A stretch of DNA of 64,000 bases from Ailanthus altissimus (taxonomy: Eukaryota; Streptophyta; Magnoliopsida; Sapindales; Simaroubaceae). Location: the NCBI GenBank assembly GCA_946807835.1, contig OX327702.1, positions 15,872,001 through 15,936,000 on the forward strand. The letters run 5' to 3'. Below, one piece after another: positions 2,862 to 62,916 of this stretch. A program made the translations under genes and the position numbers. Each line of letters opens with the position of its first letter. Position 1 is the first letter of the stretch. The notes beneath the pieces are model-generated. The model did not search any database, was not told where the DNA came from, and saw only the letters and a list, made by a program, of their open reading frames with translations.

Positions 2862-5049
2862 TGTTGGAGCTGGTGCTCACGTGCCATTCCAATATTGTAT
2901 GAATATTAATTGTTAATATTTATACAATAAACATTTCGAATAAAGATTGTTAATATCATATTAATATGGTATAATGCTTGTAACATTACAGACATTGTTT
3001 GATCTGAAAGAGTTCAGATCTGGTCTAAAGGAGTTTAGATCAGAACTAATAGTTAGCAAAGCTGAGAGTTATAAATGCTAAAAGTTAGCACTGTTAAGAG
3101 TTAGCAGGTTATAAGAGTCAGCGAGGTCTAAAGAGTTAGAACCTTGTCTATAATGGGACAAAGACCTGAGAGTATACTTGTAATGATATAGTTGCAAAGA
3201 GTTGCAATAGGTGTTAAGAAATATCATTATGTAAGTATGTCTCAAAGATAATGTTCCTGATCTATAATCACTAATGCGGGTCTATCGGTGATTCACTATA
3301 TATAGATTAGTGTATGTCTATATCTGACTGGTTCAGATGGTTGTTCTTAGCTGACCATGAGCTTAGAGCTTGTATAGGCATGCGGGTATCCAGTCAGGAC
3401 TGGATACTGAACAGACTTATGAGGACCCCAATAGATATCCTATGACACCGTCAAAGGAAGGTCCTCTCGAGTTGAGTAGTATTCGTGGTCCTTTGACCTG
3501 AGCGCCACGGTGGTCTTGTGAGTGATCCATCATGCTTTGGTTCCACATATGTCAGAGACCTTTCATGGTCTGACCGCTATGTGTCGCTAGGTATGGTCCG
3601 ATGCTCATGGAGTCCGGTGTGCGTAGATACGGGATCCGTCAGCTTACGTAGGTAAGTTGTATATCCGATGCTCCGAGATTGTATTTCATAAAGTCTTGTG
3701 GCCACAAGCATAAACCCGGGAAAAGAGTTTCCCACAGGGTTAAACAATATAGCAAAAGTGTTTGCGTATATTGTTTATCGAGATACGAATCTGGAGATAA
3801 GATTATGGATGAGCAAATAGGGATTTGACGGTGCTGATCTATATCCCTGCACATCCAGGATATAAATGATGGAAGGATTATACGTATACGTTATGACCTC
3901 AACTTGTATGGTCTGACACGCTGATTTGTAATATTCGTAACGTGTGCGTGGGGCATCGATTACGGATTAATGGAACAGTTCCATTTGACAAATCGGGTGT
4001 AGACCTAGAGAGTCCCAATATGAAATGTACTCTTTGAGCACTTGGGCAGTGTACCGTATTGAATTGTTCAATACAGTATAATTCAGCAATTACTAAGGTT
4101 ACGTTAACTAAAGTATGTGGTTAAATTGGTGGGACCCACTTTAGGTTAACTTGGTAACCGAGTAAGGATATAATAGTAATTTCACTTTATGATTATTTAA
4201 TTGTTAAATAATTAAAATAAATATTTATTTATTTAATTGTTAAATAAATTAATTTAACATAACTAAGGTTAAAAGTTAACCAAGTGGTTAAGTTAAGTTA
4301 ACCTTACTTAAAGGTTAAGTAAAGGTTAACCTAACCATGGTTAAGTTAGTTAACTATGGTTAAATTAATTAAATATTTATTAACTTAAAGGTTAAGTTAA
4401 AATAATCTAACTAAGGTTAAATGTTAACTAAGGTTAGGTTAAGCCAAATGAAATGCAAATGAAATTCAAATTAGTTTGGAATTAATTCATTTGTATATAA
4501 AGTGAAATGAAATTGAAATTCAAAATAGATTTAGTTTTTTAGGTTTTGCATTTTGGGAGCCAATTCAATTTGAGAAATTGAAATTGTTTGTTTTGTGTTT
4601 TAAGTGTTAGAACAACAAAACAAATTGAATTAATGGCTACTAAATGTAATAACTAAAAACAAGATTTGTTTTATTTATTCAAGAGTTGAATAAAAGGAAA
4701 AACAAATTTAATTAAGTTAAATTGTTTAACTTTGAAAAATGTTTAAGAGTTAAACATATATGCTGGATTAAGATGCTGCCATTCTAGACAATCAAACCCA
4801 CCCTTGTTGATTGCTAGAATTGATCAAAGATTCATTTCATGGTGGACTTCAAAGAAAATTAATCCAAAGGCTTCATTGGTGATATTCTCAATCTCGAATT
4901 TCAGTTTAATCAAATGTTATTTTCTGTGTTCATTATATGTAATCTTCCGCTGTGCACATGTATGTATGAGATATGTATATTGTTTGTATGATGAACATAA
5001 CCCACATGCAAGAACCCTAAGTAAATTCGCCCAACCATATAACCCAACA
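2862..5049 (+). repeat. Cop1-A 5' LTR
   Basis: A 2188-bp LTR with termini TGTTGG...CCAACA (last CA at 5048-5049), followed two bases later by a Met-tRNA PBS. It contains short AGAG-loop inverted repeats (3001-3207), a central block shared by all Cop1 LTRs, then a variable AT-rich part (about 4130-4800) with many diverged copies of GGTTAAGTTAA-like words. An uninterrupted 118-codon frame at 4804-5157 lies wholly in the LTR end and leader; I see no domain in it and treat it as chance. Confidence 0.9.
3001..3207 (+). other. Cluster of short hairpins with AGAG-type loops in the LTR
   Basis: Five short inverted repeats with a purine loop follow one another: GATCTGAA-AGAG-TTCAGATC (3001-3020), GGTCTAAA-GGAG-TTTAGATC (3022-3041, one G.T), TGCTAA-AAG-TTAGCA (3076-3090), TCTAA-AGAG-TTAGA (3127-3140) and TTGCAA-AGAG-TTGCAA (3192-3207). 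Counterparts occur in other Cop1 LTRs, for example near 24925, 35958 and 44070. Function unknown; they could be transcriptional elements or RNA structures. Confidence 0.6.
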
Positions 5050-5051
5050 AT

Positions 5052-5063
5052 TGGTATCAGAGC
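5052..5063 (+). promoter_or_regulatory. Primer binding site (initiator Met tRNA)
   Basis: TGGTATCAGAGC, the standard plant Ty1/copia PBS complementary to the 3' end of initiator-Met tRNA, two bases downstream of the LTR end. Here it is unmutated. It fixes the 5' LTR boundary and the orientation. Confidence 0.95.
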
Positions 5064-5169
5064 AATTTGTGTTGTTATGGGTGATTTTTTAGTGTTAGCT
5101 AAGTGTTGGCTAAATTGTAGGACAAGTTCCGGGGCTGTTGGGGTGCATTTTAAGTGTTAAAAATGCAAA

Positions 5170-5300
5170 CCAGTGAAAAACAGCACCTGGAACGCTGCAG
5201 CGCTAAGGTCCAGCGCGGCAGCGTTCATAAGAACGCGGGAGCGCTGAGCGTATGACGCCCCAGCGCTGAAGTACCGCAGCGTGGGGGTTTATGAGATGTA
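5170..5300 (+). repeat. GC-rich island in the Cop1-A leader
   Basis: A short GC-rich stretch with repeated GCAGCGC, GCGCGGCAGCG and CCCCAGCGCTG words in an otherwise AT-rich leader. Similar islands occur at the matching place in Cop1-C (about 29885-30085) and Cop1-D (about 46385-46545), and also in LTRs of unrelated families. No ORF or known motif. Confidence 0.6.
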
Positions 5301-5581
5301 ATGATAAGGGTTATTAGTTTACATGATAAACCAAGAAAATAATATTTTTATTATTTTATTTATTTTTGTAACCACAATGGGGGCCCCACTGGTGGGGGTT
5401 AGTTGTGCTTGTACAGAAATGAATAATTGATTGAGAATAACCTCTCATGTGATGAGCGCATATAATATGAAAGCCTGTAATTAAAATCTCTCTTAATTAG
5501 ATTGAAATTTATTATATTATGTGATAATATTTTAAATGGTCCGTCTTGTCAATACGGTGTGAGATGGGTCACTATGGTCTT

Positions 5582-5880
5582 TCCCAATATTGCTTTAGCG
5601 TGAGGGATTTGGTCGGTGTGACTTGGTCTAATGCCGGTAAAACATAAGATGAATCAAATATATGCGAACATATTATCCAATATTGCTTTAGCGTGAGGAT
5701 AGTGTCAGTAACATATATTTGAGCATTGATGAGTTAATCTGAAATACAGTTACCCAATATTGCTTTAGCGTGAGGGTAATGTGTATTTAGGATCAGTAGT
5801 AAGAGTTGTATGAGATACAATTGACAAGAGTTGTCTACCTGTTGGATTTATAAAGGCCAATATTGCTTTAGCGTGAGGCT
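5582..5880 (+). other. Array of four leader hairpins with constant 18-nt loop (Cop1-A)
   Basis: Four copies of the 18-mer AATATTGCTTTAGCGTGA (5586-5603, 5679-5696, 5756-5773, 5859-5876) are each flanked by different but complementary stems: TCCC/GGGA; ATTATCC/GGATAGT with one U.G; GTTACCC/GGGTAAT with one G.U; GGCC/GGCT with one G.U. The array lies between PBS and gag. The same four positions are hairpins in Cop1-C and Cop1-D. Probably an RNA structure of the genomic transcript; role (packaging, dimerisation, translation) unknown. Confidence 0.75.
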
Positions 5881-6081
5881 GGAGTAAAACCCCAATGGGA
5901 TCCACTTCCCTCTGTATAGTTTAAAATATTATACTATCTTATCCCGTTTGAGAGATTAAAGGGATTAAGTAAAGCAGTGGGAGGGCGTTTTTAGATTAAA
6001 AAATGTATAACAGTTATACCCATGATCTAAAACGTAATTTATTAACAATAAGAAATGTTCTGCTACGCATCTCCTATTTTG

Positions 6082-6160
6082 TCTTATAGAGATAAGATGA
6101 TTATCTTATAGAGATAAGATACTTGTCTTATAGAGATAAGATTGTCTTATAGAGATAAGA
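6082..6160 (+). repeat. Four tandem hairpins abutting the gag start
   Basis: TCTTAT-AGAG-ATAAGA is present four times (6082-6097, 6104-6119, 6126-6141, 6145-6160). The last A of the fourth copy is the A of the presumed gag ATG. Cop1-C has two diverged copies at the matching place (about 32458-32492), and Cop1-D only a short TCTT/AAGA remnant at about 47408. This looks like an expansion of a hairpin just upstream of the start codon. Confidence 0.7.
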
Positions 6161-9100
6161 TGAGTACGAGCAATCCGTTACTAATCTTGAACAAATACCA
6201 ATAACTATAGGGTACTGAATAAAATATGTAAGACTTGCATATGAATCTAAGAATAGTTTTAGATTCAATAATATTTGATATTACTAAACCACATATAGAG
6301 AAAAGTCATAATGGAAAGTGTTTCCACCGTGAAAAGGTTTGAAATAGTAAATGTTACTATTCATCGCACCTTCATTTAAGAAAGATTGACTCATTAGATA
6401 TCTGTTTGACCAAACATTAACATTTCATTAGCATTTGATGTTAACTCTGCAAGGGTATGAGATACCGCTTGTTATTATCATATCTGCAAGATGTTGCATG
6501 ATTTGAGTAATGCTTGATTACTAAGAAATGAGAAGTTCAGCTTCACGTAGGTAATAGAGATTTCCTGAACCTGGAAGCCGTTAAGACTTCACAGTCACTT
6601 CTTATTTCTAGTAACAGCATTAATGTTGTATAATTACTATTACGTGCCAAACATTATTAGGTAAATCATATCACTCCCTGTAGTTGACAGAGAGGGTTAT
6701 CATAAAAATATTGGAAATAGTTCCTTGTGATAATGATACTGATTTACTAATTGAATGTCAGTTAATGAATGGCCGTTATATCTTATATACAACAGGAAAT
6801 GTTATAAGTGTAGAGGTGAACAGAATATATAGTATTTCAGCAACTTAAATAATAATGAATAGTGGTATATATAAGATTAGGTCATGTAGTCGTGAGACGA
6901 CTATCCTAACTGGTTAAGGATGGTCAGATATTTGATCTGACTATAATACATTGACTAGTTTATGAATTATGAATTCAAAAGAATATGGCCGAATCTTTAT
7001 GTAGGTGTAAGACGCCAAGCCACTGGTTTATTGGATCAGGTACATATAGATGTATTTAGTCCAATAAATCTTACTGTTATAAATGATTTCGATACTTCAT
7101 TGTCTTTATAGTGAGTGTCGCTATATAGACATGTGTTTCTGGGAAACGCAGGTCAGAATAATTTCGAAGTGTTCAAAATGTTCTGACAATGAAAGTAAAG
7201 AAATAAACCCTTATGTATATTGAGTGCTTTTGATTAGATCGAAGTAATTTATACATAATCAGTAAATTCACAAATTATTTAAAGAGAATATGATTCTCTC
7301 TCAGTATAGTCCTCCAGATACTCCTCAACATAAAGATGTTTAGGAAATAAGGAATCGGACTATATTAGATACAGTCTGATTGATATTGAGAATCGCTGAT
7401 CTTCTAAAAATATCTATGAGGTTATATTTTAACATCTGCTACTCACTTATTAAATAATTCCATAATCGTTCCTACTACTTTATATGAGATATAGACTAAA
7501 TAGGAAACGAGTCTTAAGTATGTTAAGAATTAGTGTTATTCTGTTTTCATAAGAGTTATGCAACAGAATAAACTTGTATCCAACGGTACAAGTATTGGTT
7601 CATTTTGTATCCCAAGTGTATAATGGGATACCAATTCTATAATTCAGATGAACGAAATATATTCGTTTCTCATGATGTCACATTCCTAGAGAAAGTGTTT
7701 CTCATGGATTGTGGAGATTATAGAAAGATTGAACTTGATGAAGTCAATCTAAATATTGATGAACCAACGATGGAATTTTAATTTTAAATGAGTGAAATAC
7801 CTTTAACACACAATGGTCATAGGTCCAAAAGGATATCAAGGCCATCATTTAGGTATGTTTGATACTTGAATGTACCCTTGATATTTTCTTAGTTGAAGAA
7901 ATGGATCCTTTAACTTATGGAGAGACGATGTTTGACATCGATTCGGAAAAATAAAAGGATATCATAAAATTTGAAGTTGACTCAACGCATGACAATTAAG
8001 TCTAGGACTTAGTTGAGCTTCCTGTAGAAATTGTTTCTATCAGCAGTAAATCAGTTTACGCAGTGGAAGCAGTGAGGGCCCTATCTGAAGGAATGGTCCT
8101 TCATGGCCTGACTGATGTTGAAAGGTTACACTCAGAGATCTAGGATCAATAATGAGGAAACCTTTTTCATCAGTAAACATACCAAAGTCAATTTGGATTT
8201 TGTTGGTTATTGTTGTATATTATGATTATGGGACTGGCTAATGGATGTAAATAAGCTGTTCTGGGAAGTATATCTCCAACAAGAGATATGCAGAGAACAA
8301 CTTGATGTCTTTGCATCCAAGCCTAACTTCTAATATAATGTGCAAATTGAGGAAGTCCATTTATGGACTTAAGTAGATTTTTCCAAAGTTGGAATCTTTG
8401 TTTATATGATGAAATCAGAAAGTCTGGTCTTATCAGGAATAAAGAGGAAGCGTGTGTGTTCAGAAAGGGCAGTGGGAGTATAATTATCTTTTTAGTTCTC
8501 TAAAGTGGAAAATATATACTCAATATTGGAAACGATGAATGGAGTATAGCAAGTAAATCAGATAAGTGTTATCTGTGTAAAGAACTTCTTCATAAAAGAT
8601 TTGAGAGAGACTTCCTATATACTAGGTATAAAGCTTTATGGAGATATAGCTAGGAAGCTAATAAGACTCTCTCAAACTTCGTATATAGAATAAGTCCAAG
8701 AAAAGGTACAACTTCATTGACTGTGAGACAGTTAAAGTCCCTTTTAGAAGTGGCATTCATCTTTCTTAGAGGAAGTGTCCTCGGGAAGAAGATGAGAGAG
8801 TTAGAGTGTCTAACATCTCAGATGCATTAGCTAGAAATAAATTAATGCATACCGTCTAATGTACGAAATCTGGATTTAGATGGTTGTAAGTGTTACAAGC
8901 TGGTATCTGTTAAATCTAGATCATGACCATTAAATGGTTGTGAAACATATCAATATATACTTGAGAAGTATATAGGATAAGTTTATAAAATATGAAGAAA
9001 GTTTCTTACAAAAGAAGGGATACACATTCAGACTTACGTCTGAACTGAATGGTAGAAAGTCTACATCTAGTTATGTATTTCTCTTTATCAGTACCGGAGC

Positions 9101-9492
9101 TAGTTAAATGTGTGTTAGTAAAAGTCCACAGGTAATTCTGCCTTGGAGGTAGAATATGTTGCGGCTTGAGAAGTCAGCAAAGAAAGTACTATGGATATTC
9201 AAAATTAATTGCAGAGCTTTGAATAGTTCCAAGCTCAGTGGATCATATCCCACTATATTGCAAAATAACGGTAATTGCTTAAGCCGAGAAGCCATAAGGC
9301 ACACCAGTATTCTAATCATGTGAACTCTGAAAATCACATAATTAGAAAGTTCTTGGCAGCAAGAGTTGTAATAAAATCTAGGGAATAATCCTTAGATGTA
9401 GCGAACCCCCCTAAGGCTAAACTCCTATAGTGTTTGAGAAACACGTGGAGTGTATTGGTATGAGATACCAGTACGTATGGCACTGAAGCAAT
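6160..9492 (+). pseudogene. Cop1-A gag-pol remnants
   Basis: Gag starts at ATG 6160 with a short readable N-terminus (MSTSNPLL, close to the Cop1-D start MASSNSLV), then a stop. Most of gag is lost. Downstream pieces align by eye with Cop1-D: the protease-to-pre-integrase linker (about 6480-6660), GAG-pre-integrase and integrase (about 6880-7800), reverse transcriptase (about 8330-8640, with the KLRKSIYGLK stretch) and RNase H (about 9040-9400). Stops and indels occur every few dozen codons. No catalytic triad is readable. An old, dead polyprotein gene. Confidence 0.75.
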
Positions 9493-10423
9493 AACCTCTA
9501 AAGGCCTATAAGGCCTCCATGGAGATGGGGGCGGGGGTTCGATTCCTTGGGGGTGCAGGTAACCTGCGGAGGATATGTGGGTGTGCTAGTGGCTCTGAGG
9601 TGTCACCCAGCTAGTGGACCAAAGAGTTGGTGGACCCCACATACTCCTAACAAAAAGGCCGGCCTTTTTGTTAGGAGTATGTGGGGTCCACCAACTCTTT
9701 GGTCCACTAGCTGGGTGACACCTCAGAGCCACTAGCACACCCACATATCCTCCGCAGGTAACCTGCACCCCCAAGGAATCGAACCCCCGCCCCCATCTCC
9801 ATGGAGGCCTTATAGGCCTTTAGAGGTTCGTCCTTGTACCCATTGGGCTGGCCAGCTCAATGGGTACAAGGACGAACCTCTAAAGGCCTATAAGGCCTCC
9901 ATGGAGATGGGGGCGGGGGTTCGATTCCTTGGGGGCGCAGGTAACCTGCGGATTGTGTGCTGGGGCGCCAGTAGGTGCTGAGGTGTCAGCCACTGGTTGG
10001 GTACCAAAGCGTTGGTGGGCCCTACACACTCTAACAAAAAAGGCCGGCCTTTTTGTTAGAGTGTGTGGGGCCCACCAACGCTTTGGTACCCAACCAGTGG
10101 CTGACACCTCAGCACCAACTGGCGCCCCAGCACACAATCCGCAGGTAACCTGCACCCCCAAGGAATCGAACCCCCGCCTCCATCTCCATGGAGGCCTTAT
10201 AGGCCTTTAGAGGTTCGTCCTTGTACCCATTGAGCTGGCCAGCCCAATGGGTACAAGGACGAACCTCTAAAGGCCTATAAGGCCTCCATGGAGATGGAGG
10301 CGGGGGTTCGATTCCTTGGGGGTGCAGGTTACCTGCGGATTGTGTGCTGGGGCGCCAGTTGGTGCTGAGGTGTCAGCCACTGGTTGGGTACCAAAGCGTT
10401 GGTGGGCCCCACACACTCTAACA
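9493..10423. repeat. Palindromic array with pol III box motifs
   Basis: Three nested palindromes in a row. 9493-9828 is an exact inverted repeat with 168-bp arms centred on GGCC/GGCC at 9660/9661. A 46-bp near-palindromic linker (9829-9874, centre CTGGCCAG) joins it to a second inverted repeat (9875-10215, centre near 10045, few mismatches). A second linker (10216-10261) leads into a half arm (10262-10423). Each arm carries the exact B-box GGTTCGATTCC: 9536, 9918 and 10315 on plus, 9775 and 10162 on minus. Each linker carries an A-box-like CAGCYCAATGGG. It could be a SINE-derived inverted array or a fold-back MITE; not recognised as a named family. Confidence 0.75.
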
Positions 10424-30506: not shown

Positions 30507-32261
30507 TCCCAAGATCGCTACAATGTGAGAAATTGGTCGGGCTGATTCGAGCTATGTTGATTAAACATGAGATGAGGTAAATATATGCAAAAATACTATC
30601 CTAGATCGCTATAGTTTACGAGTAGTATCGATAACATATATTTGATGATTGACAAATGATAAGGGCAAATTTGTCATATATTTTCTCATGTTTTTATTAT
30701 TGATATTTTATGGTTTTATGAGAATAGATGACTATTTATGTGCATTATTGTTATTTATAGGGACTTGAACAAAATTTAAAGAATGCAAAGTTTTCAAATT
30801 ATGAGTCCAGCGCCCCCGCGCCATAAGTATTTTCGCCCCAGCTCTTAGTAATCGAAATAAGAAAAACAACCTGCTTAAGTTGCGTCTAGCGCCCCCGCGC
30901 CTAAGACTCACCGTGCCAGCGACGGTACATAGCCCCAGCGCTATCAACATACCGCGCCAGCGGTGAAGCTGTTTTCATGCAGCGCCCCAGCGCCAAGCTC
31001 CCACCGCTCCTGCGATAATAGCTTTTTCACGCGTCGCCCCAGCGACAACTGCATAGCGCGCCAGCGGTAGTGCGAGTCCTAGTCCGACGAGAATTGAGAT
31101 TTTCAAGCTCATATCAAACCCTATAAAAAGCCACTCGTTCCCAACCTTCAAGAATGAATCCAAGACGACCCAAGATCACCAAGAATACAGAGCACGAGTT
31201 TCGAAGAGCAATAAAAGTTTAATTGAGGCAACTTTAGAGAGAGATTTAAGACGTTCTTCGGCATCAAGAGATCTTAGGCAGCGCAATTAAGAGCAATTCA
31301 ACATCTATATCGGTTTGCTATTGATTGTATCATGTTTTATTTTTATTTTTATTGCTGTGATTCTCTTGTAACCATGAGCTAAACTTATTTTCTAGGGTTA
31401 ATATTTGAACTCAATATGTGCGCTTTAATTGCTATATCTTTTAGTATTTAATAAACTTAGTCCTTTATTATTTAAATTACTTGTGTTTAATGCTTCAATA
31501 TATCTGGCCAATATATGGTGAATGAATTGGTAATATTTTGATAAACTCGGAAGAGGAATCAATATATTTAGACCTAGGTAATTTGATGCATGATTGTAGA
31601 GTAACATTCAATATTGCATATGCAAGTTTCAATTTAGGATAAGAATATACCTAGTTGGCATGTATGATCAATAAGACCTAATCTTAATGAATCTTAATTT
31701 ATTACCAGTACCATAGGAATATAGGTATTTGGTAAACTAAGATATACTTGCATGACCTTGGAAGAGGCTTGTGAATACATTAGTGTCTTGATCAATAATA
31801 AAGACTAAGTGAGTTAAATATTAGAGGATTAATCATTAGAAACATATTGAGGGATAATATTAATCCTAGGTTTTCTTTACATTGCTATCTTCCTATTCTC
31901 TTTGCATTGTGTTTTTACTTTTATATTTTCTACATTCATTCTTAGATTTTTATTTTTCTGAATAATTATTAGGAAGACATAATTTTAGTAATTGGTTATT
32001 AAGAAGAAATTATCCCTGTGGGTTCGACATCTAACTAATTAGTCTCTTTATTACTTGCATATGATAATGTATACTTGCACTTAATTTATGATATAGAAAT
32101 ATCGCATCAACAAGTTAATCTGAAATACACTTATCCTAGATCGCTACAGTATGCGAATAAGGTGTATTTAGGATCAGTAGTAAGAGTTGTATGAGATATA
32201 ATTGACAAGAGTTGTCTACCTTTTGGGTTTACAAATGCCAAGATCACTAAAATGTGCAAAT
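30507..32261 (+). other. Four leader hairpins of Cop1-C, split by a solo LTR
   Basis: Loops of exactly 18 nt lie at 30511-30528, 30602-30619, 32137-32154 and 32240-32257. Stem 2 is ATACTATCC against GAGTAGTAT (nine positions, one C.A mismatch, one U.G). Stem 3 is CTTATCC against GAATAAG (seven positions, one C.A). Stems 1 and 4 have largely decayed. An Athila-like solo LTR (30657-32109) separates hairpins 2 and 3. Confidence 0.65.
30657..32109 (+). repeat. Athila-like solo LTR
   Basis: 1453 bp, TGATAAGGGC...CGCATCA. Flanks ACAAA (30652-30656) and ACAAG (32110-32114) form a 5-bp TSD with one mismatch. The Cop1 leader reads through without it, compared with Cop1-A. The end block CCCTGTGGGTTCGACATC resembles the TTGTGGGATCGACACC of the LTR at 57646-59199, hence Athila/Tat group. 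A GC-rich part (30810-31075) holds repeated GCGCCCCCGCGCC and GCGCCCCAGCGCC words. Short ORFs there follow from the GC content. Confidence 0.8.
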
Positions 32262-46911: not shown

Positions 46912-47206
46912 TTTCAAGATCGCTAAAGTGTGAGGGATTGATCAATGTGACTTGGGCTATACTGTAAACATGAGATGAGGAAAATATATGCCAAAGTATT
47001 ACCCTAGATCACTAAAGTATGCGGGTAATACTGGTAACATATATTTGATGATTGATAAGTAAATCTAGAATATATTTATCATAGATCGCTAAAGTGTGCA
47101 GATAAAGTGTATTTAGGATCAATAGTGAGAGTTGCATGAGATGCAATTGATAAGAGTTATCTACCTTTTGGGCATACAAAGGCCTAGATCGCTAAAGTGT
47201 GCGGCT
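46912..47206 (+). other. Array of four leader hairpins with 18-nt loop (Cop1-D)
   Basis: Loops TAGATCGCTAAAGTGTGC or close variants, 18 nt each, at 46916-46933, 47005-47022, 47082-47099 and 47185-47202. Stem 2 is perfect over 10 bp: AGTATTACCC/GGGTAATACT (46995-47004 with 47023-47032). Stem 3 is TTTATC/GATAAA next to one A.A. Stem 4 is GGCC/GGCT. Stem 1 is weaker: TTTC/GGGA with two U.G. It matches the arrays of Cop1-A and Cop1-C by position. Confidence 0.75.
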
Positions 47207-47423
47207 GAAGTAAAATGTCAATAAGGTTTACTTCTCACTGTATAGTTTAAATAGTTTTGAACTATCAATTTTTCGTTTAAGAGATTAAAGGGATTATGTA
47301 AAATAGTAGGAGGGTGTTTCTAGATTAAAAATGTATAACTGTTATACCTATGATCTAAAACGGTATTTATTAGTGATTGAAATATTCTATTGACATCTTT
47401 TTCTTTTGTCTTGTGAAGATCAA

Positions 47424-48387
47424 ATGGCTTCAAGCAATTCATTAGTTCGTATCCTTGATGCGTACCAACTCAAAGATGTAGAACATTATGCTGACTGTCT
47501 TATGAATCTCAGAATAGTTTGAGATTCTGAGAATCTTGGATATGTAATTATCAGCACCAGTCCCGAGCCATTTCTGATGATGATTCTCTAGAAGAAAAGG
47601 ATATATATAAAAAATAGTTGGATGATAATTTAAAAGTCAAATTGTACATCATCGGCTCAATGTCTGTGTAGCTCTAAAGGGAGCATGCTACATGGATAAT
47701 GCTGAGAGTATAATGCTTCACCTAAAAGAGTTATTTGGTGACCAGCCTCAAGTTAAAATATACAGGGTTACCAAATCTCTCTTTCAACCTAGACTACCCG
47801 AGGGCAGTTTGGTAAGTTTTCATGTCCTCAAAATCATATCTCATATTGAGAGGTTGAAAATCATGCATATCTCATTGAGCAATACATTGGGAATAGTTTG
47901 ATTCTCCAATCACTACCAAGTTTATTTGCACAGTTCATTATGAACTTCAATATACAAGGATTGACTTATACTTATGCTGATCTGCATAACATACTAAAAA
48001 CAACTCAAGAAGACATAAACAAAGCAGGCACGACCCTCTATGTTTAAGGTGCTTCATCTTCTACTCCGAAGACTTCTAAGAAGTTCAAAGGGAAGAATAA
48101 AAAGAAAGTAAAGAAAACACCCAATATAGGTCCTTAAAAGAAACATCTGTCCAAGTTCCAACATAAGAACAAAGCAAAAGAAAAATATTTTCATTACAGC
48201 GAGAATAGGCATTGGAAGGGGAATAGCCCAAAATACCTTGCCACGATTAAGAAGACCCCCTCAGGTATGCACTTGCCTATCCTTGACATTTCTTTAGCAT
48301 TTGATGCTAGTACTGGTTGGGTATTATTAGATATTATTTGTCCTTCTCACATCTGCAATGTATTGCATGGTTTGAAGGAAGTTAGAC
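47424..48387 (+). pseudogene. Cop1-D gag and protease remnant
   Basis: Gag starts MASSNSLVRILDAYQLKDVEHY at 47424 and is soon interrupted. A UBN2-type gag core is readable at 47692-47898 (AESIMLHLKELFGDQPQVKIYRVTKSL in part). The zinc knuckle (about 48187-48240) has lost its Cys residues: FHYSENRHWKGN. The protease region reads WVLLDIICPSHICNVL at about 48318-48365, with the D-T/S-G active site changed to D-I-I. The chromovirus-like solo LTR interrupts just after GLKEVRL. Confidence 0.8.
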
Positions 48388-51166
48388 TGACAGGACCCGA
48401 CCCGAGACCCTTTACTATAGATCCCAGCGGCCCTGCCGGGCACCCCGATGGAAGTTCCTCCGAACCTAACTGGGTATGTTAAGAAATTCCGCAAGGTGAA
48501 CCCCTTTTTAATTCTTGTTACTACTAAGAAGATCTAGTAATATACATGAAAACGACATCTTAGTTTTAAAAACAAACAGATAGAGTTTCCCCTGTTTTTC
48601 GAAAAATCCATATAAACCTGCAAAGAAATTTCACTTCTAATTCCAACACATCTCAATTCTACCAATTCGGACCTCTGGTCCTTTTCAAATCAAATCCAAC
48701 ACAACTCAATTATTTCGTTAAATCACAAAATAAGCATAATCATAAAAAGTAAAAACGATCATCATAAACTGGAAATCTCTTCTTCTTGATTCAACACATA
48801 CTTACAAATATACATGCCTACAACTATTATGCATAAAGTAAAGAGTGCTATTAGCACATTTACATGTACAAAAATTATCTTTGGATTTGGCCCACTACTC
48901 GGCGATAGGAGAATCAGCAGCTTGCGTTCTGAGACCTGCACCTGGGAAAGGGGTTTAAAAAACACAAAACATAAAATGGGTGAGCTAAAGGAGCTCAGTG
49001 AGTGTAAATGAGATTTCAATTACAAGAACATTATACAAAGATAGCAATTTCTAACGTTCATGCAGAATTTATGCTTTTAAAATGGAAGTAAAACTGTAAA
49101 ATGGTTTCTAATATCATATGCTAATGAAATATTGCCGAACGGTTTTATCTACATCTTTGGAAAACTATATTCAGAATCTGCATAACATAATAACTGTTGT
49201 GTACATATAAATGCATAAATGCTATCGGTAAATCGAAAACTAGTAAAATCCTCGCTCGACTATTTTCTTTCTAAACTGTACCAATGGTAAATCTAAAGCT
49301 CTATACCCACGCAGCGACTCAACTAGCACTGCATACGTGAGTAGGTCACGGGGCACCTCAACTAGCAGCACCCACAGTGACATCTCAAGACATCTCACTG
49401 GCTACGCAGCGGAATCCTACATCGCATACATATAGCGAGACAATATCCCGTACACATAGAGCGACTCACATGACTCGACATCCCGACTTCCCAGAGTTAG
49501 TGACACACCCTTAAGACCTGCCCATGTGCACGGGATATATCGACCGGGTCTAATACAATCATCACCACTATAATCTGAGGGTACCAATGGCCTTAAAACA
49601 AATGCAGAAATTTTAAAACTGTTTCACAAATCGATCATGTAAAAGCATGTCTATGAATATATCAAGATCATAAATCATGTTTATGCATCGAAAGCTCATA
49701 AAACATACATAGTCATTGTGCAAAAACATAATAACCGAAAAGTAAACGAAATGGCAGATTTCCACTCACAACCGCTCCACGCTCAATTTCGCTCCCAATT
49801 CTTGCTCCCATTAACGCTCTCGGTTATCTTCACCTACGCGCCATAAATGACATTTAGAACCAAATCAAACACTAGAATATCATTTATCTACTAAATGCCC
49901 TAATCGGCATACAAAGCCCGGATGTAAACTACTTCCCGATTTTAGTTACGAAGCCATAATCGAAACTAACTCACCATCCGGCGCCCTGAAAATTATTGAA
50001 CACCTTATAATTTGATTGGACATACTTGCCCTTCACCTTTCCAACATGGACAATTATGTCCCATTTTCTTCATTTTTGGGTTTTTCCATCAGCCATATAC
50101 ATTCAATTCACAATATGTATCATTTACACACAACAATTCAATCAAAACACCACTCAATTCCTAACTTCCCTAAAGTGGCAGAATTTCACCCTAAGTTCCA
50201 ACACATTCCTTTTCTCAATTTCTTGTTCCAATTATAACAAAATCATGCCAATTTCATTCTAAAGCCCTAATTACAATCAATTGAAATCTCTACAACAAAA
50301 TCACCAATAACCCTAATTCTCACCTAGCCAATTTCTTCAAATTGATGACTCCTTCAGGCTCCAAACTAGAATTCAACTTAATCTAAGCCAAGAATACACA
50401 TAAGGACATCAATTAAAACATTCTTGAAATCTCACTTATCAAACTCATAAAAGATGCTTTTCTTACCTCTTTTTCTTGAATTTTCACTAATAGAGACTTC
50501 AATTGAACTTAGGGATGAGTTTGTAACCTTAATTTGGCTTGATTACACATGAAAAATCATGAAAACAAAACTTGAGTAGTCACTGTAGCACCCCCCCCCC
50601 CCCTTTGAAGCTCGAATTTCTCTCTTTTTTTTGGCTAAGTGTTGGTTTTGATCTCTCTTCAAATTTCTACACACTTCTAACATATATATAGTGCTCCCTT
50701 AATTTACTATTTTGCCCTTCAACTTACTTAAAACTTCTAATTTGCCATTAGTTAAAAACTAATTATGTAATTAGTTCATTTGTAACTATCTAGTTAGAAT
50801 AGTTCAAAGAACTAACTAGAACTTCCAACTTGGCAATCCATGAGATTTCTTCTAATTGGTCCATTCTCTAATATATGGATTATGTTTCTCAACAAAGGCT
50901 TGTTCCATTCATAACCCTTAAATAGAAATTCATGTAGTAAATTAGAATTTTCTTTTCCAAGCCAATAGAAAAAAATTCTAAAAATATTCTAGGGTCATCC
51001 GGCGCACCGATCGAGTGTGAAATTACCAAATTAGGTCTAATATCTCTCACGTGCACTATAACGGGAATATTTCTAATAGGGTTAAAATCGAGTAACCCTA
51101 CGGTGTCTTATTTGTTCTATACCGAAATCTAGGCGCCAATACTACTAATAGGGATTGGATATTACA
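48388..51166 (-). repeat. Chromovirus-like (Del/Tekay type) solo LTR, TSD TAGAC
   Basis: 2779 bp. On the minus strand it runs TGTAATATCC...GGGTCCTGTCA. TAGAC at 48383-48387 recurs at 51167-51171, an exact 5-bp TSD. Removing it joins Cop1-D GLKEVRL to LQPREVLLRVENRDFL, as expected for copia. The start TGTAAT with GATTTCGGTATAG downstream and the end GGTCGGGTCC are typical of Del/Tekay LTRs (by recollection, not by search). It has a run of 13 C at 50591-50603 and tandem-like ACTAGCA/GCATAC words at 49320-49450. ORFs inside are noncoding. Confidence 0.8.
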
Positions 51167-52852
51167 TAGACTATTACAACCCAGAGAAGTACTGCTTCGT
51201 GTTGAAAATAGAGATTTCCTGCAGGTTAAGGCTATTGGACGTTTTAATTTACTTCTTTTATATAATAAAGAATTTTTATTGAATAATTGTTATTATATGC
51301 CAAACATTATTCGGCAAATTATTTTCATTCCTATATTAGACAGTGAGGGATATCATATGTATGTTCAGAATCGTTTCTTATATTTGTATGATTTGGATAA
51401 TATTTTATTAGTTGAATGTTAGTTGATTAATGACCATTATATATTAGATACAATAGGAAATGTCCTGAATGTATAGGTAAACGTTAATAAAAACTAGAGA
51501 ACTTTAAATGATACATGATTGTAGTATATGAGATTAGGTCATATAGGTGTGAGATGCCTAACCCATCTAGTCGAGAATGGTCAAATACCTGATCTGACCA
51601 TAGAATCTTATCCAGTTTATGAATTTTGTATTCAAGGGAAAATGACCAAAGCTTAATTTATTGGTGTTAGACACCACGCCGCTAATTTATTGGAACTTGT
51701 ACATAGTGATGTATGTGGTCCAATGAATCATACTACAATAGGAGGATTTCGATATTTTGTTATTTTTATCGATGTTCTATCAAGATTTGGATATGCGTTT
51801 TTAATAAAATATAAGTCAGAAACTTTTGAAAAGCTCAAACAGTTTCGACTCGAAGTAGAGAAACAAACCGGAAAGTATATCAAGTGCTTGTGATCAAATT
51901 AAGGTGGTGAATACATGAGCAGTGAATTTTTGGATTATTTAAAAGAGAATAAGATTCTCACTCAATATAGTCCTCTAGGTACTCCACAACACAATGGTAT
52001 TTTGGAGATGAGGAATCAGACTTTATTATATATAGTTCGATTAATGATGAGTTTCACCGATCTCTTTAAATATCTATAGGGTTATGTTCTAGAAACTACT
52101 GCTCATATATTAAATAGAGTTCCATCAAAAGTCGTTCCATCCAATCCACATGAGATATGGATTGAAAGAAAATCGAGTTTTAAGTATATTAAGATTTGAG
52201 GCTGTCCTACTTATATAAAGTTACGCAACAGGATAAACTTGTACCTAGAGCATACAAGTACAGGTTCATTGGGTATCCTAAAAATTTAATGGGATACTAA
52301 TTCTATGATCTAGAGGAATGAAATGTGTTTGTTTCTCGTTATTCCACTATGAAATTTGGAAAATGGATGTACAAACGGTGTTCTTAAATAGATATCTTGA
52401 AAAAGAAATCTATATGGAACAACCTAAAGGTTTTACATCCAACCAAATTTTTAGTCTAGTATGCAAATTGAAGAAGTCTATTTATGGACTTAAGCAGGCC
52501 TCCCAAAGTTGGAATCTTCATTTTGATGAGGTAATCAGAGGATCTGATTTCATCAAGAACGAAGAGGAATCATGTGTGTATAAAAATAGCAGTGGGAGCA
52601 TAGTAGTGTTCTTGGTTCTCTATATGGATGACATACTCATTATTGAAAATGATATTGGTATGTTATAGTCAGTCAAAAGCTACCTTAGTAAGAATTTCTC
52701 CATGAAAGATATGGGAGAGGCTTTCTATATATTGGGTATAAAGCTTTATAGAGATAGGGCTAAGAGGCTTATAGGACTCTCTTAATCATTGTACATGGAT
52801 AATGTCTTAGAAATGTATAATTTAGTAATTGTAAGATAATTAATATACCTTT
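51167..52852 (+). pseudogene. Cop1-D integrase and RT remnant
   Basis: The best preserved copia coding part here. LRVENRDFLQ and CYYMPNIIRQII lead into GAG-pre-integrase (LGHIGVRCLTHLV). Integrase: ELVHSDVCGPMN (first Asp), then GGEYMSSEFLDYL with the second Asp broken by stops, then GILEMRNQTLL (Glu kept). A deletion near 52355 joins the region after integrase to RT. RT at 52357-52665: WKMDVQTVFLN, YMEQPKGF, KLKKSIYGLKQASQSWN and an intact YMDDILI near 52621. Decay resumes after 52668. Cut at 52853 by an LTR. Confidence 0.85.
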
Positions 52853-56005: not shown

Positions 56006-57645
56006 TTACAAGATCCGACCCGAGATCCTCTACTATAGATCCCAGCGGCCCTGCTGGGCACCCCGACGGAAGTTCCTCCGACCTAACTGGGTAATTTGAG
56101 AAATTCCGCGAGGCGAACCCCTTTTTAATTCTTGCTACTACTGAGAAGGTCTTGTAATATACATGAAAATGACATCTTAATTTTTTTTAAAAATGGACAG
56201 AGTTTCCCCTGTTTTTCTGAAAATCCATATAAAACCTGCAAAGAAATTTCACTTCTATTTCCAATACATCTCAATACTACCAATTTGGACCTTCGGTCCT
56301 TTCCAAATCAAATCCAACACAACTCAATTATTCATTTAAACCACAAAATGAGCATACTCATGAAAAGCAAAAATGATCATCATAATCTCGAATTCGTTTC
56401 TTGTTGGTTCATAACATACATACAAATATACATGCCTACAACTACTATGCATAAAGTAAAGAGTGCTATTTAGCATATTTACATGTACAAAAATGATCTT
56501 CGAATTCAGCCCACTACTCGTTAATAAGAGAATCAGCAGCTTGCGTACCTAGACCTGCACCTGGGAAAGGGGTTTAGAAAATATAAAACACAAAATGGGT
56601 GAGCTAAAGGAGCTCAGTGAGTGCAAATAAAATTTCAATAAAATAATATTATGTATAGATAGTAAATTCTAAAGTTCATTTATAAATCATTGCTTCTAAA
56701 ACTGATGTAATATTGTAAAACAGTTTCTAACATCATATGCTATTGAAATCTTGCCGAGCAGGTTTTATCTACATCTTTGAAAAACCGCATCCAGAATCTG
56801 TATAACATAATAACTACTGTGTGCATATAAATGCATAAATGCTATCGGTAAATCGAAAACTAGTAAAATCCTCACTCGACCATTTTCTTTCTAAACTGTA
56901 CCAATGGTAACCCTAAAGCTCTATACTTATGCAGTGACTCAACTAGCACCGCACACATGAGTAGGTCACGGGGTACCTCAACTAGCAGCACCCACAATGA
57001 CATCTCAAGACATCTCACTGGCTATGCAGCAAAATCCTACATCGCATACATATAGCGAAACAATACCCCGTACACATAAGGCGACTCACATGACTTGACA
57101 TCCCGACTTCTCGGAGTTAGTGACACACCCCCAAGACCTGCCCATGTGCACGAGATATACCGGCCGGGTCTAATACAATCATCACCGCTACAATCTAAGG
57201 GTACTAATGGCCTTTAAAACAAATGCAGAAATTCTAAAGCTGTTTCTCAAATCGAACATGTAAAAGCATGTCTATGAATATATATATATATATATATATA
57301 TCAAGATCATAAATAATATTTATGCATCGAAAGATCATAAAACATACATATTCATTATGCGAAAACATAATAAACGAAAAGTAAAAGAAATGGTAGATTT
57401 CCACTCACAACCGTTCCATGCTCAATTTTGCTCCCGATTTCTGCTCCCGTTATCGTTCTCGGTTATCTTCACATACGAGTCATAAATGACATTTAGAACA
57501 AAATTGAATGCTAGAATCTCATTTAACTACTAAATGCCCTAATCGGCATACAAAGCCCGAATGTGTACTACTTTTTGATTTTTATTTACAGAGTCATTTA
57601 ATTTAATCTAACTCACCATCCGGCGCCCCGAATATTATTGCACGC
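56006..57645 (-). repeat. Chromovirus-like LTR, second copy, interrupted
   Basis: Matches 48388-50010 closely, from the GATCCGACCCGAG block to CCATCCGGCGCCCCGAATATTATTG. An (AT)12 run at 57278-57301 replaces a shorter AT run of the first copy (about 49654). The rest of the LTR (about 1.1 kb) is not in the window because the Athila-like element starts at 57646. Confidence 0.8.
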
Positions 57646-59885: not shown

Positions 59886-59978
59886 TAACTTATTTCTATT
59901 TCTTGTTGTGTTTATTCCACTTCTTAATTTTCCTTAAGCATTTCTTTCCCAAATAAAAAAAATATAAATTTAGGATGT

Positions 59979-61455
59979 ATGTATCGACCTAGAGACAAAC
60001 GAGAAAGATTTGTAAGAGAATTAGAACTAGAACCACCCCCACAATTTGTAAGTGAAGAGAATTCACCTTCTAGTTCATCTTGTAATTCTAACACAATGAG
60101 CCAACACGAAGAAAACCCCGTTAGAACTCTAAAAGATTACTTGCATCCTACTCGCACAGCCACACCATCATGCATTATATTTCCACCTAACACACCACAT
60201 TCGGATTTTAAACCTGGAATGATACAACTTCTTCCCACTTTTCATGGTTTAGATAGTGAAAATCCTTATGTACATGTTAGGGAATTTGAAGAGGTAATTG
60301 CCACCTTCCATAGCCAACCTGAAGCCATATACATTGTTAGACTTAAATTTTTCCCTTTTTCTTTGAAAGACAAAGCAAAGAGTTGGCTATACTCTTTGAG
60401 GCCGAGGTCTATAGGAACTTGGGCAGAAATGACCCAAGCATTTTTAAATAAATACTTCCTACAACACAAAACTAATGGCCTGAAAAGACAAATTTCTTCC
60501 TTCTCCCAAAAAGACAGTGAAACCTTATATCAAGCATGGGAAAGGTTTAAAGAATTGTTAAATCTGTGCCCTCACCATGGGTATGAAAATTGGCGCTTGG
60601 TTAGTTATTTTTATGAGGGACTCACAATTAGAGAGCGCCAATTTGTTGAGATGATGTGTAATGGGGAGTTCCTTCACAAAGATCCTGAGGAAGCCATAGA
60701 ATTCCTTAATGACTTAGCCAAAAAAGCCCATACATGGACTGGACCTAGCATTACTGAAAGCACAAATAGGTCACGACTCAATGGAGTTTTCCATCTTAGG
60801 GAAGAGGATAACCTCAAAGCCCAATTAGAGGTCTTAACTAGGGAGTTAGAGGCCTTGAAAACCAAAGATAGAAGGGTCTCACCCACACGGTTGCTAGAGT
60901 TGAGTCACACGATGTCTGTTTTATCTGTGGAGGAGCGGAACACTTAGCTTAGGTTGTCCCATGTATAGTGAGATGAGAGGGATATATGAGGAACAATGTA
61001 ATGCCCTAGGGATGTACAAGAAGCCTTATTCACCCTACTCTGAAACATATAATCCTAACTGGAGAAACCACCCAAATTTCAGTTGGAAATCTGACCAACA
61101 AGCCAACAACCAATGGAAACAAGAACAACAAGCACCCAAGTCTTATGTTGCACCTCAATATAATGCACGACCAACTAGGAGTTCTTTAGAGGATACATTA
61201 CAAGCATTTATGGAGGCACAAAGTAAGACTAATCAAAAATTTGAAACAATTCTTGCACAGGTGGTGGACGAAAACAAAGAAATCAAGAGTCAAATCACAA
61301 AGTTGACCAGTGCCTTAACTGTACAAGAGCGAGGTAAGTTTCCATCTCAACCTCAATCCAATCCGAAAGGACAATTCATGGCACAAGCTTCTACTTCTGA
61401 TGTTCAAAACTCAAAGAAGTCAATGCCATTACTACTCGAAGTGGTAAGATTGTAA
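59979..61455 (+). pseudogene. Gag of the Athila-like element (two frameshifts)
   Basis: Frame one, 59979-60944, about 322 residues: a leader rich in Glu/Pro/Ser, then the retrotransposon gag domain from about residue 75 (FHGLDSENPYVHVREFEEV, LKDKAKSWLYSL, LYQAWERFKELLNLCPHHG, SYFYEGL). A coiled-coil-prone stretch (EEDNLKAQLEVLTRELEALK) follows. The zinc knuckle CFICGGAEH lies in another frame at about 60917 with a TAG inside, and the C-terminal part (YSEMRGIYEEQCNALGMYKKPY, then a Gln/Asn-rich tail) is in a third frame, 60961-61452. So one frame change before and a one-base loss after the knuckle. Gag packages the RNA. Confidence 0.85.
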
Positions 61456-62916
61456 GTGAGCCTACTCCTGAAATTAACACATCTACGAGTAGTAAAGACG
61501 CCCCCCCTTGAAAAAGAGGCCACAGTGGAAAAAGAGCCCGAAAGTAAGTTTTCAATCCCAGTGCCTTTTCCTCAAGCTCTTCGACCGGTTGGGAAAAACT
61601 CAAAAATTCAAGGTGAGATTTTAGAACATTTGAAACAAGTTAAAATTAATCTTCCCTTATTACATTTGATTAAGTAGGTTCCAACTTATGCCAAAGTCAT
61701 CAAGGATTTATGTACTATCAAAAGAAAACACCATGTGAAGAAAACTGCATTTTTAGCAGAACAAGTAAGTGCAGTGATTGAACAAAAGACACCACCCAAG
61801 TATAAAGACCCAGGATGTCCCACAATCTCCTGCCAAATTGGGACACATGAGTTTGGTCAAGCTTTATTGGACTTAGGAGCAAGTATAAATTTAATGCCTT
61901 ATTCTATTTACTTGTAGTTAGGACTTGGTGAGATTAAACCAACCTTTGTAGTCCTACAATTAGCTGACCGATCAATCAAGAAACCACGGGGAATAGTAGA
62001 AGATGTTTTGTTACAAATTGATAAATTTTACTACCCTGTTGATTTTCTTGTTTTAGATACTCATTCTGTTGTTAACATGGAGTCAAAAATCCCTCTTATT
62101 TTGAGGAGACCTTTTCTAGCCACTGCTAACGCTCTTATTAATTGCAGAAATGGTCTAATGAAATTATCTTTTGGGAATATGACTCTTGAGGTGAACATAT
62201 TTCATATTGATAAGCAATCACGAGAAGAAGACGAATGCTATCATTCATATATGATAGACATACTTAGAGCGGAGGAAGCTTATAAAAATCATGGCTCTAA
62301 TTCTTTAGAAAATCTCTTTGATTTTGATATTGAAGAATTATATTATCCTGATGAAATAACTGATATGTTTAGTATTTTTGACTCACAGGATAAAGGGATT
62401 CGATTTTGGAAACCAGGCATTGAAAAGTTGCCACGAGAGAAGGAGAAACCAAAGTCATCAAAACTCGAGACACCACGTGTCATCATTAGTGACCAAGGAA
62501 CACATTTCTCTAACTGTTCTTTTACAACTTTGAGTGCTGCAGGTCTCCAGAGAAAGTTACAATTGTCAGAAATAGAAGAGCTACGAAATGACGCATATGA
62601 CAACTCCAGAATCTACAAAGCTAAAATGAAAGTAGCTCATAATAAACAGATCTCAAGGAAACACTTTGAGCCCAATCAACAGGTCTATCTTTATGATTCT
62701 CGATTGCATTTACACCCTGAAAAGTTGAGATCTCGATGGACTGGTCTATTTATGGTAAGACATGTTTTTCCTAATGGGGCTGTTGAAATAAAGGACCCCA
62801 CTAATGGACGAACTTTTAAAGTGAATGGACAGCAGCTAAAAAGCTATGTGGAAAAGGTAGACGACTCTATGTACCTAGGCAAGATCCCTCTTGTGGATCC
62901 TGTCTATCATGATTGA
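61456..62916 (+). pseudogene. Protease fused in frame to integrase C-terminus
   Basis: One reading frame with only two stops, both TAG (61675 and 61915). Parts: gag-pro linker; aspartic protease with LLDLGASINLMP at about 61864-61899, then QLADRSIKKPRGIVEDVL and VPLIL-like IPLILRRPFLA; acidic linker; then RVIISDQGTHFSNCSF (second Asp region of integrase, about 62478) joined soon after to LQRKLQLSEIEELRNDAYDN and the integrase C-terminal part SRWTGLFMVRHVFPNGAVEI, ending 62916. RT, RNase H and most of the integrase core are gone, yet both joins keep the frame. Not autonomous. Confidence 0.85.

What the first reader, a model, noticed from the sequence alone, without database searches (positions are those of the whole stretch)
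5582..5880. Cop1 leader hairpins: constant 18-nt loop, variable stems kept by covariation
Seen: in Cop1-A, Cop1-C and Cop1-D the leader holds four copies of an 18-nt motif, always 18 nt long, each flanked by a different complementary pair of arms. Between elements the arms change on both sides together. Hairpin 2: third pair U-A in A, U.G in C, C-G in D; sixth pair U.G in A, C-G in C, U-A in D. Hairpin 3: third pair C-G in A, U-A in C and D; seventh pair G.U in A, C-G in C, U-A in D. Stem 2 of D is perfect over 10 bp. Compensatory change in otherwise dead elements suggests that the structure was selected while the family was active. A repeated constant loop on unlike stems suggests a loop-binding protein or loop-loop contact, for example in RNA packaging or dimerisation. 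I know of no described counterpart.
Basis: partly seen in the sequence, partly recalled or inferred. Interest (0 to 1): 0.88.

Follow-up and report, generated by a model that had tools for sequence, protein, structure and literature searches.

The report
Four-hairpin retrotransposon leader, shared loop
The RNA leader of a plant jumping element appears to fold into four hairpins that show the same short motif on four different stems, and a recently spread family that can no longer make its own coat protein has kept it, which suggests a packaging tag read by another element's coat protein.

Summary
Elements A, C and D each carry four copies of a 21-nt motif on unlike arms, and the quoted compensatory pairs are in the sequence. 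Stems written from A alone predict pairing in D-type copies: 8 of 79 pairs are broken in D, 21.6 expected. Over 30 copies 91.3% of cells pair, and 28 cells are changed on both sides, 14.6 in shuffles. HP2 and HP3 are best supported, HP4 is weak, and single-sequence folds do not always agree.

Corrections: (1) A is not dead. Its LTR pairs are 99.3-99.9% identical in three copies, yet no open frame exceeds 110 aa in five, so it is a young non-autonomous family. A D-type relative, L038, has the same leader before an unbroken gag. (2) The 18-nt loop holds its own 3-bp stem, and five positions switch in all four hairpins between A and D types. (3) I saw no conserved loop-loop complementarity.

Most likely it is a multivalent cis signal bound by Gag, used in trans by the gag-defective family. 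Gag binding is inferred, not shown.

The parts
2862..5049 (+). 5' LTR of element A (about 2.19 kb)
   Evidence: Aligns to the LTRs of L039, L040 and L042
5052..5063 (+). Primer binding site TGGTATCAGAGC
   Evidence: Exact match (loose matches to this 12-mer are common by chance); that it is the initiator-Met tRNA type of plant Copia elements is recalled
5562..5629 (+). Hairpin 1, motif 5585-5605
   Evidence: MFE fold of A; outer stem recovered by RNAalifold; in D 4 of 22 pairs broken; helix 1 only 78.6% of cells paired, helix 2 95.0%
5654..5722 (+). Hairpin 2, motif 5678-5698
   Evidence: MFE; 7-bp helix with 3 double-sided pairs among A, C, D; helices 4-6 (88.7, 93.0, 93.3%)
5737..5793 (+). 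Hairpin 3, motif 5755-5775
   Evidence: MFE of A; helix 7: 5 of 18 pairs changed on both sides, 94.4% of cells paired; L038's own MFE folds it otherwise
5804..5822 (+).
   Evidence: TTGTAT-GAG-ATACAA in A, TTGCAT-GAG-ATGCAA in D; 96.7% of cells paired
5823..5835 (+). Small hairpin with GAG triloop (2)
   Evidence: GACAA-GAG-TTGTC in A, GATAA-GAG-TTATC in D; 98.0% of cells paired; not in the RNAalifold consensus
5847..5888 (+). Hairpin 4, motif 5858-5878 (weakest of the four)
   Evidence: In the folds of D and L038; A's MFE and RNAalifold fold this stretch otherwise; D's HP4 fold on A: 5 of 20 pairs broken, 1 double change; helices 11-13 paired in 88-98% of cells
5341..6120 (+). Conserved leader block as a whole
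   Evidence: Among 23 A copies, pairwise divergence 1.11% (5341-5559) and 1.39% (5901-6120), both outside the search query, against 3.27% in the relic 6501-9200
6083..6159 (+). Second array: four copies of CTTATAGAGATAAG, each able to form a hairpin with AGAG loop
   Evidence: 4 copies in the window and in 21 of 23 fetched A copies (3 in the other two); 0 in the 6 D-type loci checked
6410..9491 (+). Pol relic of A without long open frame; the middle of gag is missing upstream of it
   Evidence: tblastn pieces; no stop-free stretch over 110 aa in 5 copies; alignment to L043 skips its 3747-4299
30510..32259 (+). Element C motifs 30510-30530, 30601-30621, 32136-32156, 32239-32259 (leader split by an insertion)
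46915..47204 (+). Element D motifs 46915-46935, 47004-47024, 47081-47101, 47184-47204
47394..48482 (+). Gag remains of D directly downstream of the leader
   Evidence: Stop-to-stop pieces that resemble the open gag of L038 by eye; Pfam found no family in the two pieces tested, 47629-47901 and 48138-48482

Best explanation
The region is the structured 5' leader of a Ty1/Copia-type plant LTR retrotransposon. Four hairpins with unlike stems each present one recognition element: an asymmetric internal loop (motif positions 2-6 and 17-19), a 3-bp stem (7-9 with 14-16) and a UNNA tetraloop (10-13). Supported by comparison: the fold is kept by selection, most likely on the sense RNA; it occurs before gag in a gag-bearing relative and in a young family whose gag is broken. 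Inferred: the repeated element is a multivalent docking site for the Gag/nucleocapsid protein and works as packaging (psi-type) signal; the A family spreads because its RNA still carries the signal and is packaged by Gag made by a relative. Inferred further: the four sites change together because they must all fit the same reader.
For: Structure: stems from A leave 8 of 79 pairs broken in D against 21.6 expected when the same substitutions are placed at random (0 of 500), with 8 double changes against 2.7; fewer broken pairs than the random mean in all 31 rows compared; 91.3% of 2712 cells paired, 28-42% when slid; 28 double-changed cells against 14.6 (0 of 500 shuffles). G.U 411 against A.C 91, ratio 4.5; the slid controls give 0.6-1.6. 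RNAalifold finds HP1 (outer stem), HP2 and HP3 unaided. Fold z-score -5.4 for L038. Biology: A has LTR pairs of 99.86, 99.91 and 99.28% (3 of 4 copies; no direct pair in L041), no open frame over 110 aa in 5 of 5 copies, and a leader that varies less than the dead pol even outside the query. L038, 1 of the 30 D-type loci, has an unbroken gag after the same leader; its Gag has Retrotran_gag_2 and a zinc knuckle. Concert: positions 4, 7, 11, 12, 15 differ from A in every hairpin in 24-29 of 29 copies. Precedent: BARE2 cannot make Gag, is packaged in BARE1 particles, and has conserved dimerisation and packaging signals (PMC3735527, passages).
Against: No binding, packaging or expression data. No gag-bearing partner with the A-type motif was identified; that search did not complete. 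Only two well-sampled subfamilies plus one decayed C, and the rows share ancestry. Double changes reach p 0.05 in only 17 of 31 rows (D counted twice, as L009), not in L038 (0.088). A's leader is only modestly stable (z -2.1, 2 of 100 shuffles as good). L038's own minimum-energy fold keeps HP1, HP4 and both GAG hairpins but folds HP3 otherwise and only part of HP2's inner stem. HP4 and GAG hairpin 2 are not in the RNAalifold consensus, whose covariation term is small (-3.9 of -54.4). The percentage paired exceeds column shuffles only slightly (91.3 against 90.7), and the slide control favours any structure taken from one of the sequences. The G.U excess is partly inherited from A's fold, which allows G.U and not A.C. 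The blind scan shows no excess for HP3-4. A copies were picked by the leader itself, so the 0.12% there is biased.
Confidence: 0.5

Rival explanations
1. RNA export or stability element: the repeated hairpin binds a host protein (as the RTE and MTE of mouse elements do, and, recalled, the retroviral CTE) and takes unspliced element RNA out of the nucleus.
For: Repeated internal-loop motifs suit a host-protein site; RTE/MTE elements and the structured leader of plant pararetroviruses recruit export factors (PMC12786077, passages). A gag-defective family would need export as much as packaging.
Against: A host reader should change slowly, so five switched positions in all four sites between A and D types fit a fast-evolving, element-coded reader better (inference).
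Confidence: 0.2
2. Translation control: the hairpins regulate ribosome access or shunting ahead of gag.
For: Position upstream of gag in L038 (gag starts about 0.2 kb after HP4).
Against: The leader varies less than the pol relic in a family with no long open frame.
Confidence: 0.08
3. Repeated small-RNA target: the 21-nt motif is a four-fold siRNA or miRNA site.
For: Identical 21-nt blocks, four per A element.
Against: Arms are unlike yet complementary and change in compensation; the motif changes keep the apical stem (7-16 U.G to C-G, 8-15 G-C to G.U). A target site needs no stem.
Confidence: 0.07
4. Dimer linkage: the hairpins join two genomic RNAs by loop-loop contact.
For: Retroviral leaders use hairpins so (PMC5874298, passages).
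Against: I see no self-complementary loop kept between A and D types (AATATT against GATC, different register; UUUA against UAAA).
Confidence: 0.1
5. Neutral relic: chance duplications of a short motif, with stems as chance and shared ancestry.
For: Few subfamilies; the blind scan for HP3-4 shows no excess; single-sequence folds disagree in places.
Against: young copies keep the block, also outside the query.
Confidence: 0.05

Closest known systems
GACG hairpin pair (SL-C, SL-D) in the leader of murine leukaemia virus; two GACG loops also in RD-114
   Same: Same loop on more than one hairpin in the dimerisation leader (PMC5874298, passages seen)
   Different: There two hairpins with a 4-nt loop that contact each other; here four hairpins with a 21-nt motif, a 3-bp apical stem and no kept self-complementarity; Copia, not retrovirus
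BARE1/BARE2 of barley (Copia; BARE2 lacks Gag)
   Same: Gag-less partner packaged in trans, with packaging and dimerisation signals conserved (PMC3735527, passages seen)
   Different: No repeated-loop hairpin array in the passages read ('hairpin' occurs 0 times in that paper); different elements
LARDs (large non-autonomous LTR elements; Sukkula, Dasheng/RIRE2)
   Same: Non-coding interior and recent amplification; LARD class over 4 kb (PMC4558846, passages). That Sukkula has long LTRs and conserved RNA structure inside is recalled
   Different: A keeps a Copia pol relic and shares its leader with gag-bearing relatives in the same genome; the repeated motif is new to me
PSI of TRIM elements
   Same: Said to be conserved only as structure and to give packaging specificity (PMC4558846, passages)
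   Different: There proposed and not located; here specific hairpins are delimited

Membership tests
Ty1/Copia LTR retrotransposon | Copia-type Gag and RVT_2 reverse transcriptase | tested here: met
   PF07727 in D 52309-52668, E 6.5e-25; PF14223 and zf-CCHC in L038 Gag. Two gag pieces of D itself gave no Pfam match
Ty1/Copia LTR retrotransposon | Paired LTRs and primer binding site | tested here: met
   LTR pairs in L039, L040, L042 and L043; PBS at 5052. In the window itself A's 3' LTR was not found (for part of the LTR)
Non-autonomous LTR element (LARD-like) | Recently inserted copies without coding capacity | tested here: met
   LTR identity 99.28-99.91% in 3 of 4 copies; no open frame over 110 aa in 5 of 5 copies
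Non-autonomous LTR element (LARD-like) | Mobilised in trans by an identified partner | not tested
   The genome search with P0001 did not complete; no partner with the A-type motif identified
Retroelement packaging signal (psi) | Structured leader element between PBS and gag, kept in gag-bearing and gag-defective relatives | tested here: met
   structure by prediction and comparison only
Retroelement packaging signal (psi) | Binds Gag and is needed for packaging | not testable with these tools
   needs bench work
GACG-type kissing hairpin pair | GACG tetraloops that contact each other | tested here: not met
   tetraloop positions read UUUA in A and mostly UAAA in D-type copies (sequence reading)
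Any Rfam family | Match to a curated covariance model | tested here: not met
   on 5000-6600 only one hit, 20.4 bits against a cut-off of 60, other strand

The most novel reading that the evidence does not exclude
A four-site lock for an element-coded reader: all four hairpin motifs of a lineage evolve in concert with that lineage's Gag, so the A-type and D-type motifs are two specificity classes that keep the packaging of rival retrotransposon lineages in one genome apart, and the gag-defective A family is a parasite of one class.
Probability: 0.25. Interest if true: 0.78.

Novelty: new variant of a known kind. Interest (0 to 1): 0.6.

Why it matters
Packaging signals of plant LTR retrotransposons are, as far as I know, mostly assumed rather than mapped, although these elements make up much of plant genomes. 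A delimited, repeated, covarying RNA motif with thousands of first-look candidates in one genome (not all scored), gag-bearing and gag-defective carriers and two natural motif versions would make two open questions testable: what Gag reads on plant retrotransposon RNA, and how non-autonomous families choose their helper.

Tried and rejected
Rejected or weakened: dead-relic view of A; loop-loop contact as the main role (sequence reading); known RNA family (Rfam); the motif in viral contigs (one degenerate exact pattern, 0 matches; records of the own genome may be left out there). Dropped rows: L009 (same place as D) and L021 (near copy of L020) were left out of alignment A3; L047 was dropped from the divergence figures because its relic part misaligns (37.5%). 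The left part 5041-5340 is an alignment artefact of indels and is not used. The blind scan was inconclusive.

Wanted and not obtained: a genome-wide search with L038 Gag for an A-type partner, an A sample picked by pol relic instead of leader, and more subfamilies with the C leader (genome search not answered).

Full report
What is there. The finding lies in the leader of a Ty1/Copia-type LTR retrotransposon: 5' LTR 2862-5049, primer site 5052-5063, leader to about 6120, pol relic 6410-9491. Reverse transcriptase (PF07727) is recognisable in the related element D. The own genome has 939 Mb in 37 contigs; its name is not given.

Is the fold more than chance? Hairpins 1-3 (66 pairs, from A's own minimum-energy folds) and two small GAG-triloop hairpins (13 pairs, read from A) were tested on D-type copies. 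In D, 53 of 79 pairs are unchanged, 10 changed on one side, 8 on both sides and 8 broken; placing the same substitutions at random gives 2.7 double and 21.6 broken. All 31 rows (D is counted twice, as D and L009) have fewer broken pairs than the random mean (0 of 500 in 30 rows, 0.004 in L026); the double-change count is at or under 0.05 in 17 of 31 and is 0.088 in L038. The rows share ancestry, so these are not independent tests. For HP4, D's fold put on A leaves 5 of 20 pairs broken with one double change, which is weak. With 30 sequences and 91 pairs (HP4 written by hand), 91.3% of cells pair; sliding gives 28-42%; double-changed cells are 28 against 14.6 in shuffles (0 of 500), and pairs with such a change 16 against 10.3 (7 of 500); column shuffles alone give 90.7% paired, since most columns vary little. 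RNAalifold on the same alignment finds HP1's outer stem, HP2, HP3 and the core of GAG hairpin 1 unaided, with 20 of 105 pairs changed on both sides, but folds HP4 and GAG hairpin 2 otherwise. At the A-defined pairs the 29 other copies hold 411 G.U and 91 A.C; slid controls give ratios of 0.6-1.6 instead of 4.5. That asymmetry is expected if the + strand RNA must fold, but part of it is inherited from A's fold, which allows G.U only. Against the model: a blind scan of A, C and D alone is inconclusive; A's own leader is only moderately stable (z -2.1; L038 z -5.4); the stem beside the motif is in the local minimum-energy fold for 6 of 12 window hairpins (A HP1-3, D HP2-4); and L038's own fold replaces HP3 by another pairing and forms only part of HP2's inner stem.

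The loop is not a plain loop. Positions 7-9 and 14-16 can form a 3-bp stem under a UNNA tetraloop: A has U.G then G-C, D-type has mostly C-G then G.U. Positions 2 and 19 are A/A in all four A motifs and in HP1 of 30 of 30 D-type rows, and U/C or U/U in 88 of 90 HP2-4 motifs. Positions 4, 7, 11, 12 and 15 differ from A in each of the four hairpins, in 24-29 of 29 copies. Because the arms are unlike, copying of 21-nt blocks is not the obvious reason; a shared reader that moved is (inference).

Dead or alive? A is one of a large young family. LTR pairs are 99.86, 99.91 and 99.28% identical in 3 copies; no direct pair was found in the fourth, L041. No stop-free stretch over 110 aa exists in the interior of 5 copies. 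D's gag pieces up to 48044 find nothing in A; A aligns weakly with the start of L043's gag (6203-6353) and then again only from L043 4299 on, so the middle of gag is missing. Among 23 of 24 aligned copies the relic (6501-9200) differs by 3.27% per pair, 6121-6500 by 2.35%, the leader flanks outside the query by 1.11% and 1.39%, and the query itself by 0.12%. The last figure is biased by how copies were picked; the flanks are not directly so. By a rough Poisson estimate from these figures, about one copy with at most one mismatch in 341 nt would be expected among 4649, against at least 40 seen (inference; rate differences among copies are ignored).

The gag-bearing relatives. Of 30 D-type loci, L038 has an unbroken gag-to-BBD frame after the same leader, and L037 has it in stretches of 205 and 245 aa parted by one stop; the others are more broken or interrupted in the part fetched. 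L038 Gag (441 aa as read) has PF14223 and a CCHC zinc knuckle. The element around L038 (L043) has an LTR pair at 98.84% over 2071 columns and stop-free stretches of 684 and 608 aa; A's pol relic is 71% identical to it, the leader 75%, parts of the LTR 64-78%. So the same leader type sits in a gag-bearing and in a non-coding family, both with recent insertions. The 120 listed Gag relatives (of 236) are at most 45% identical; those with a name are plants.

Mechanism. The economical reading is a multivalent Gag-docking, psi-type signal: needed in cis by both families, kept where no protein is coded, repeated to raise avidity, and changing in concert. BARE2/BARE1 is the precedent for a gag-less Copia element packaged in trans with conserved packaging signals (PMC3735527, passages). 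Gag binding, packaging and the identity of the helper are inferred. Export by a host factor is the best rival.

Known or new. A conserved loop repeated on leader hairpins is known from murine leukaemia virus (GACG pair; PMC5874298, passages). A packaging element kept only as structure has been postulated for TRIMs (PMC4558846, passages). No paper with this motif or such a four-hairpin array in a plant element turned up in the open-licence library (searches; I saw listings, and passages of the papers named); subscription papers are not covered. Rfam has no match above cut-off. I rate it a new variant of a known kind. On rechecking I mended several statements (L037's gag, D's gag pieces, L038's fold of HP3, the G.U control) and left the odds as they were.

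Noticed in passing
window 6083-6159: Second array just after the leader: four copies of the self-complementary CTTATAGAGATAAG (hairpin with AGAG loop), present in all 23 fetched A copies (4 in 21, 3 in two) and in none of 6 D-type loci checked.
   Followed up: partly
window 5378-5388: Upstream in the conserved block, TGGGGGCCCCA (A), TGGGAACCCTA (D) and TGGGAGCCCTA (L038) could form one more small hairpin; seen in alignment A4, not tested.
   Followed up: no
window 9486-10423: Inverted repeats (95-99% complementary arms) abut the end of element A at 9491, where its 3' LTR should begin; related stretches lie in or next to other A insertions (L041, L042).
   Followed up: partly
window 30656-32105: About 1.45 kb of other DNA splits the leader of element C between hairpins 2 and 3.
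   Followed up: no
window 48390-50001 and 56008-57643: A 1.6-kb repeat at 87% identity; one copy seems to interrupt element D between its gag and pol remains.
   Followed up: no
window 59928-62916: Long open frames (339, 183, 332 aa) that look to me like a different LTR element; family not tested.
   Followed up: no
L039 5395-5899 and matching places in L040 and L041: A 250-nt direct duplication (92-93%) in the interior of three A copies, not found in L042: the A family has structural subtypes.
   Followed up: no
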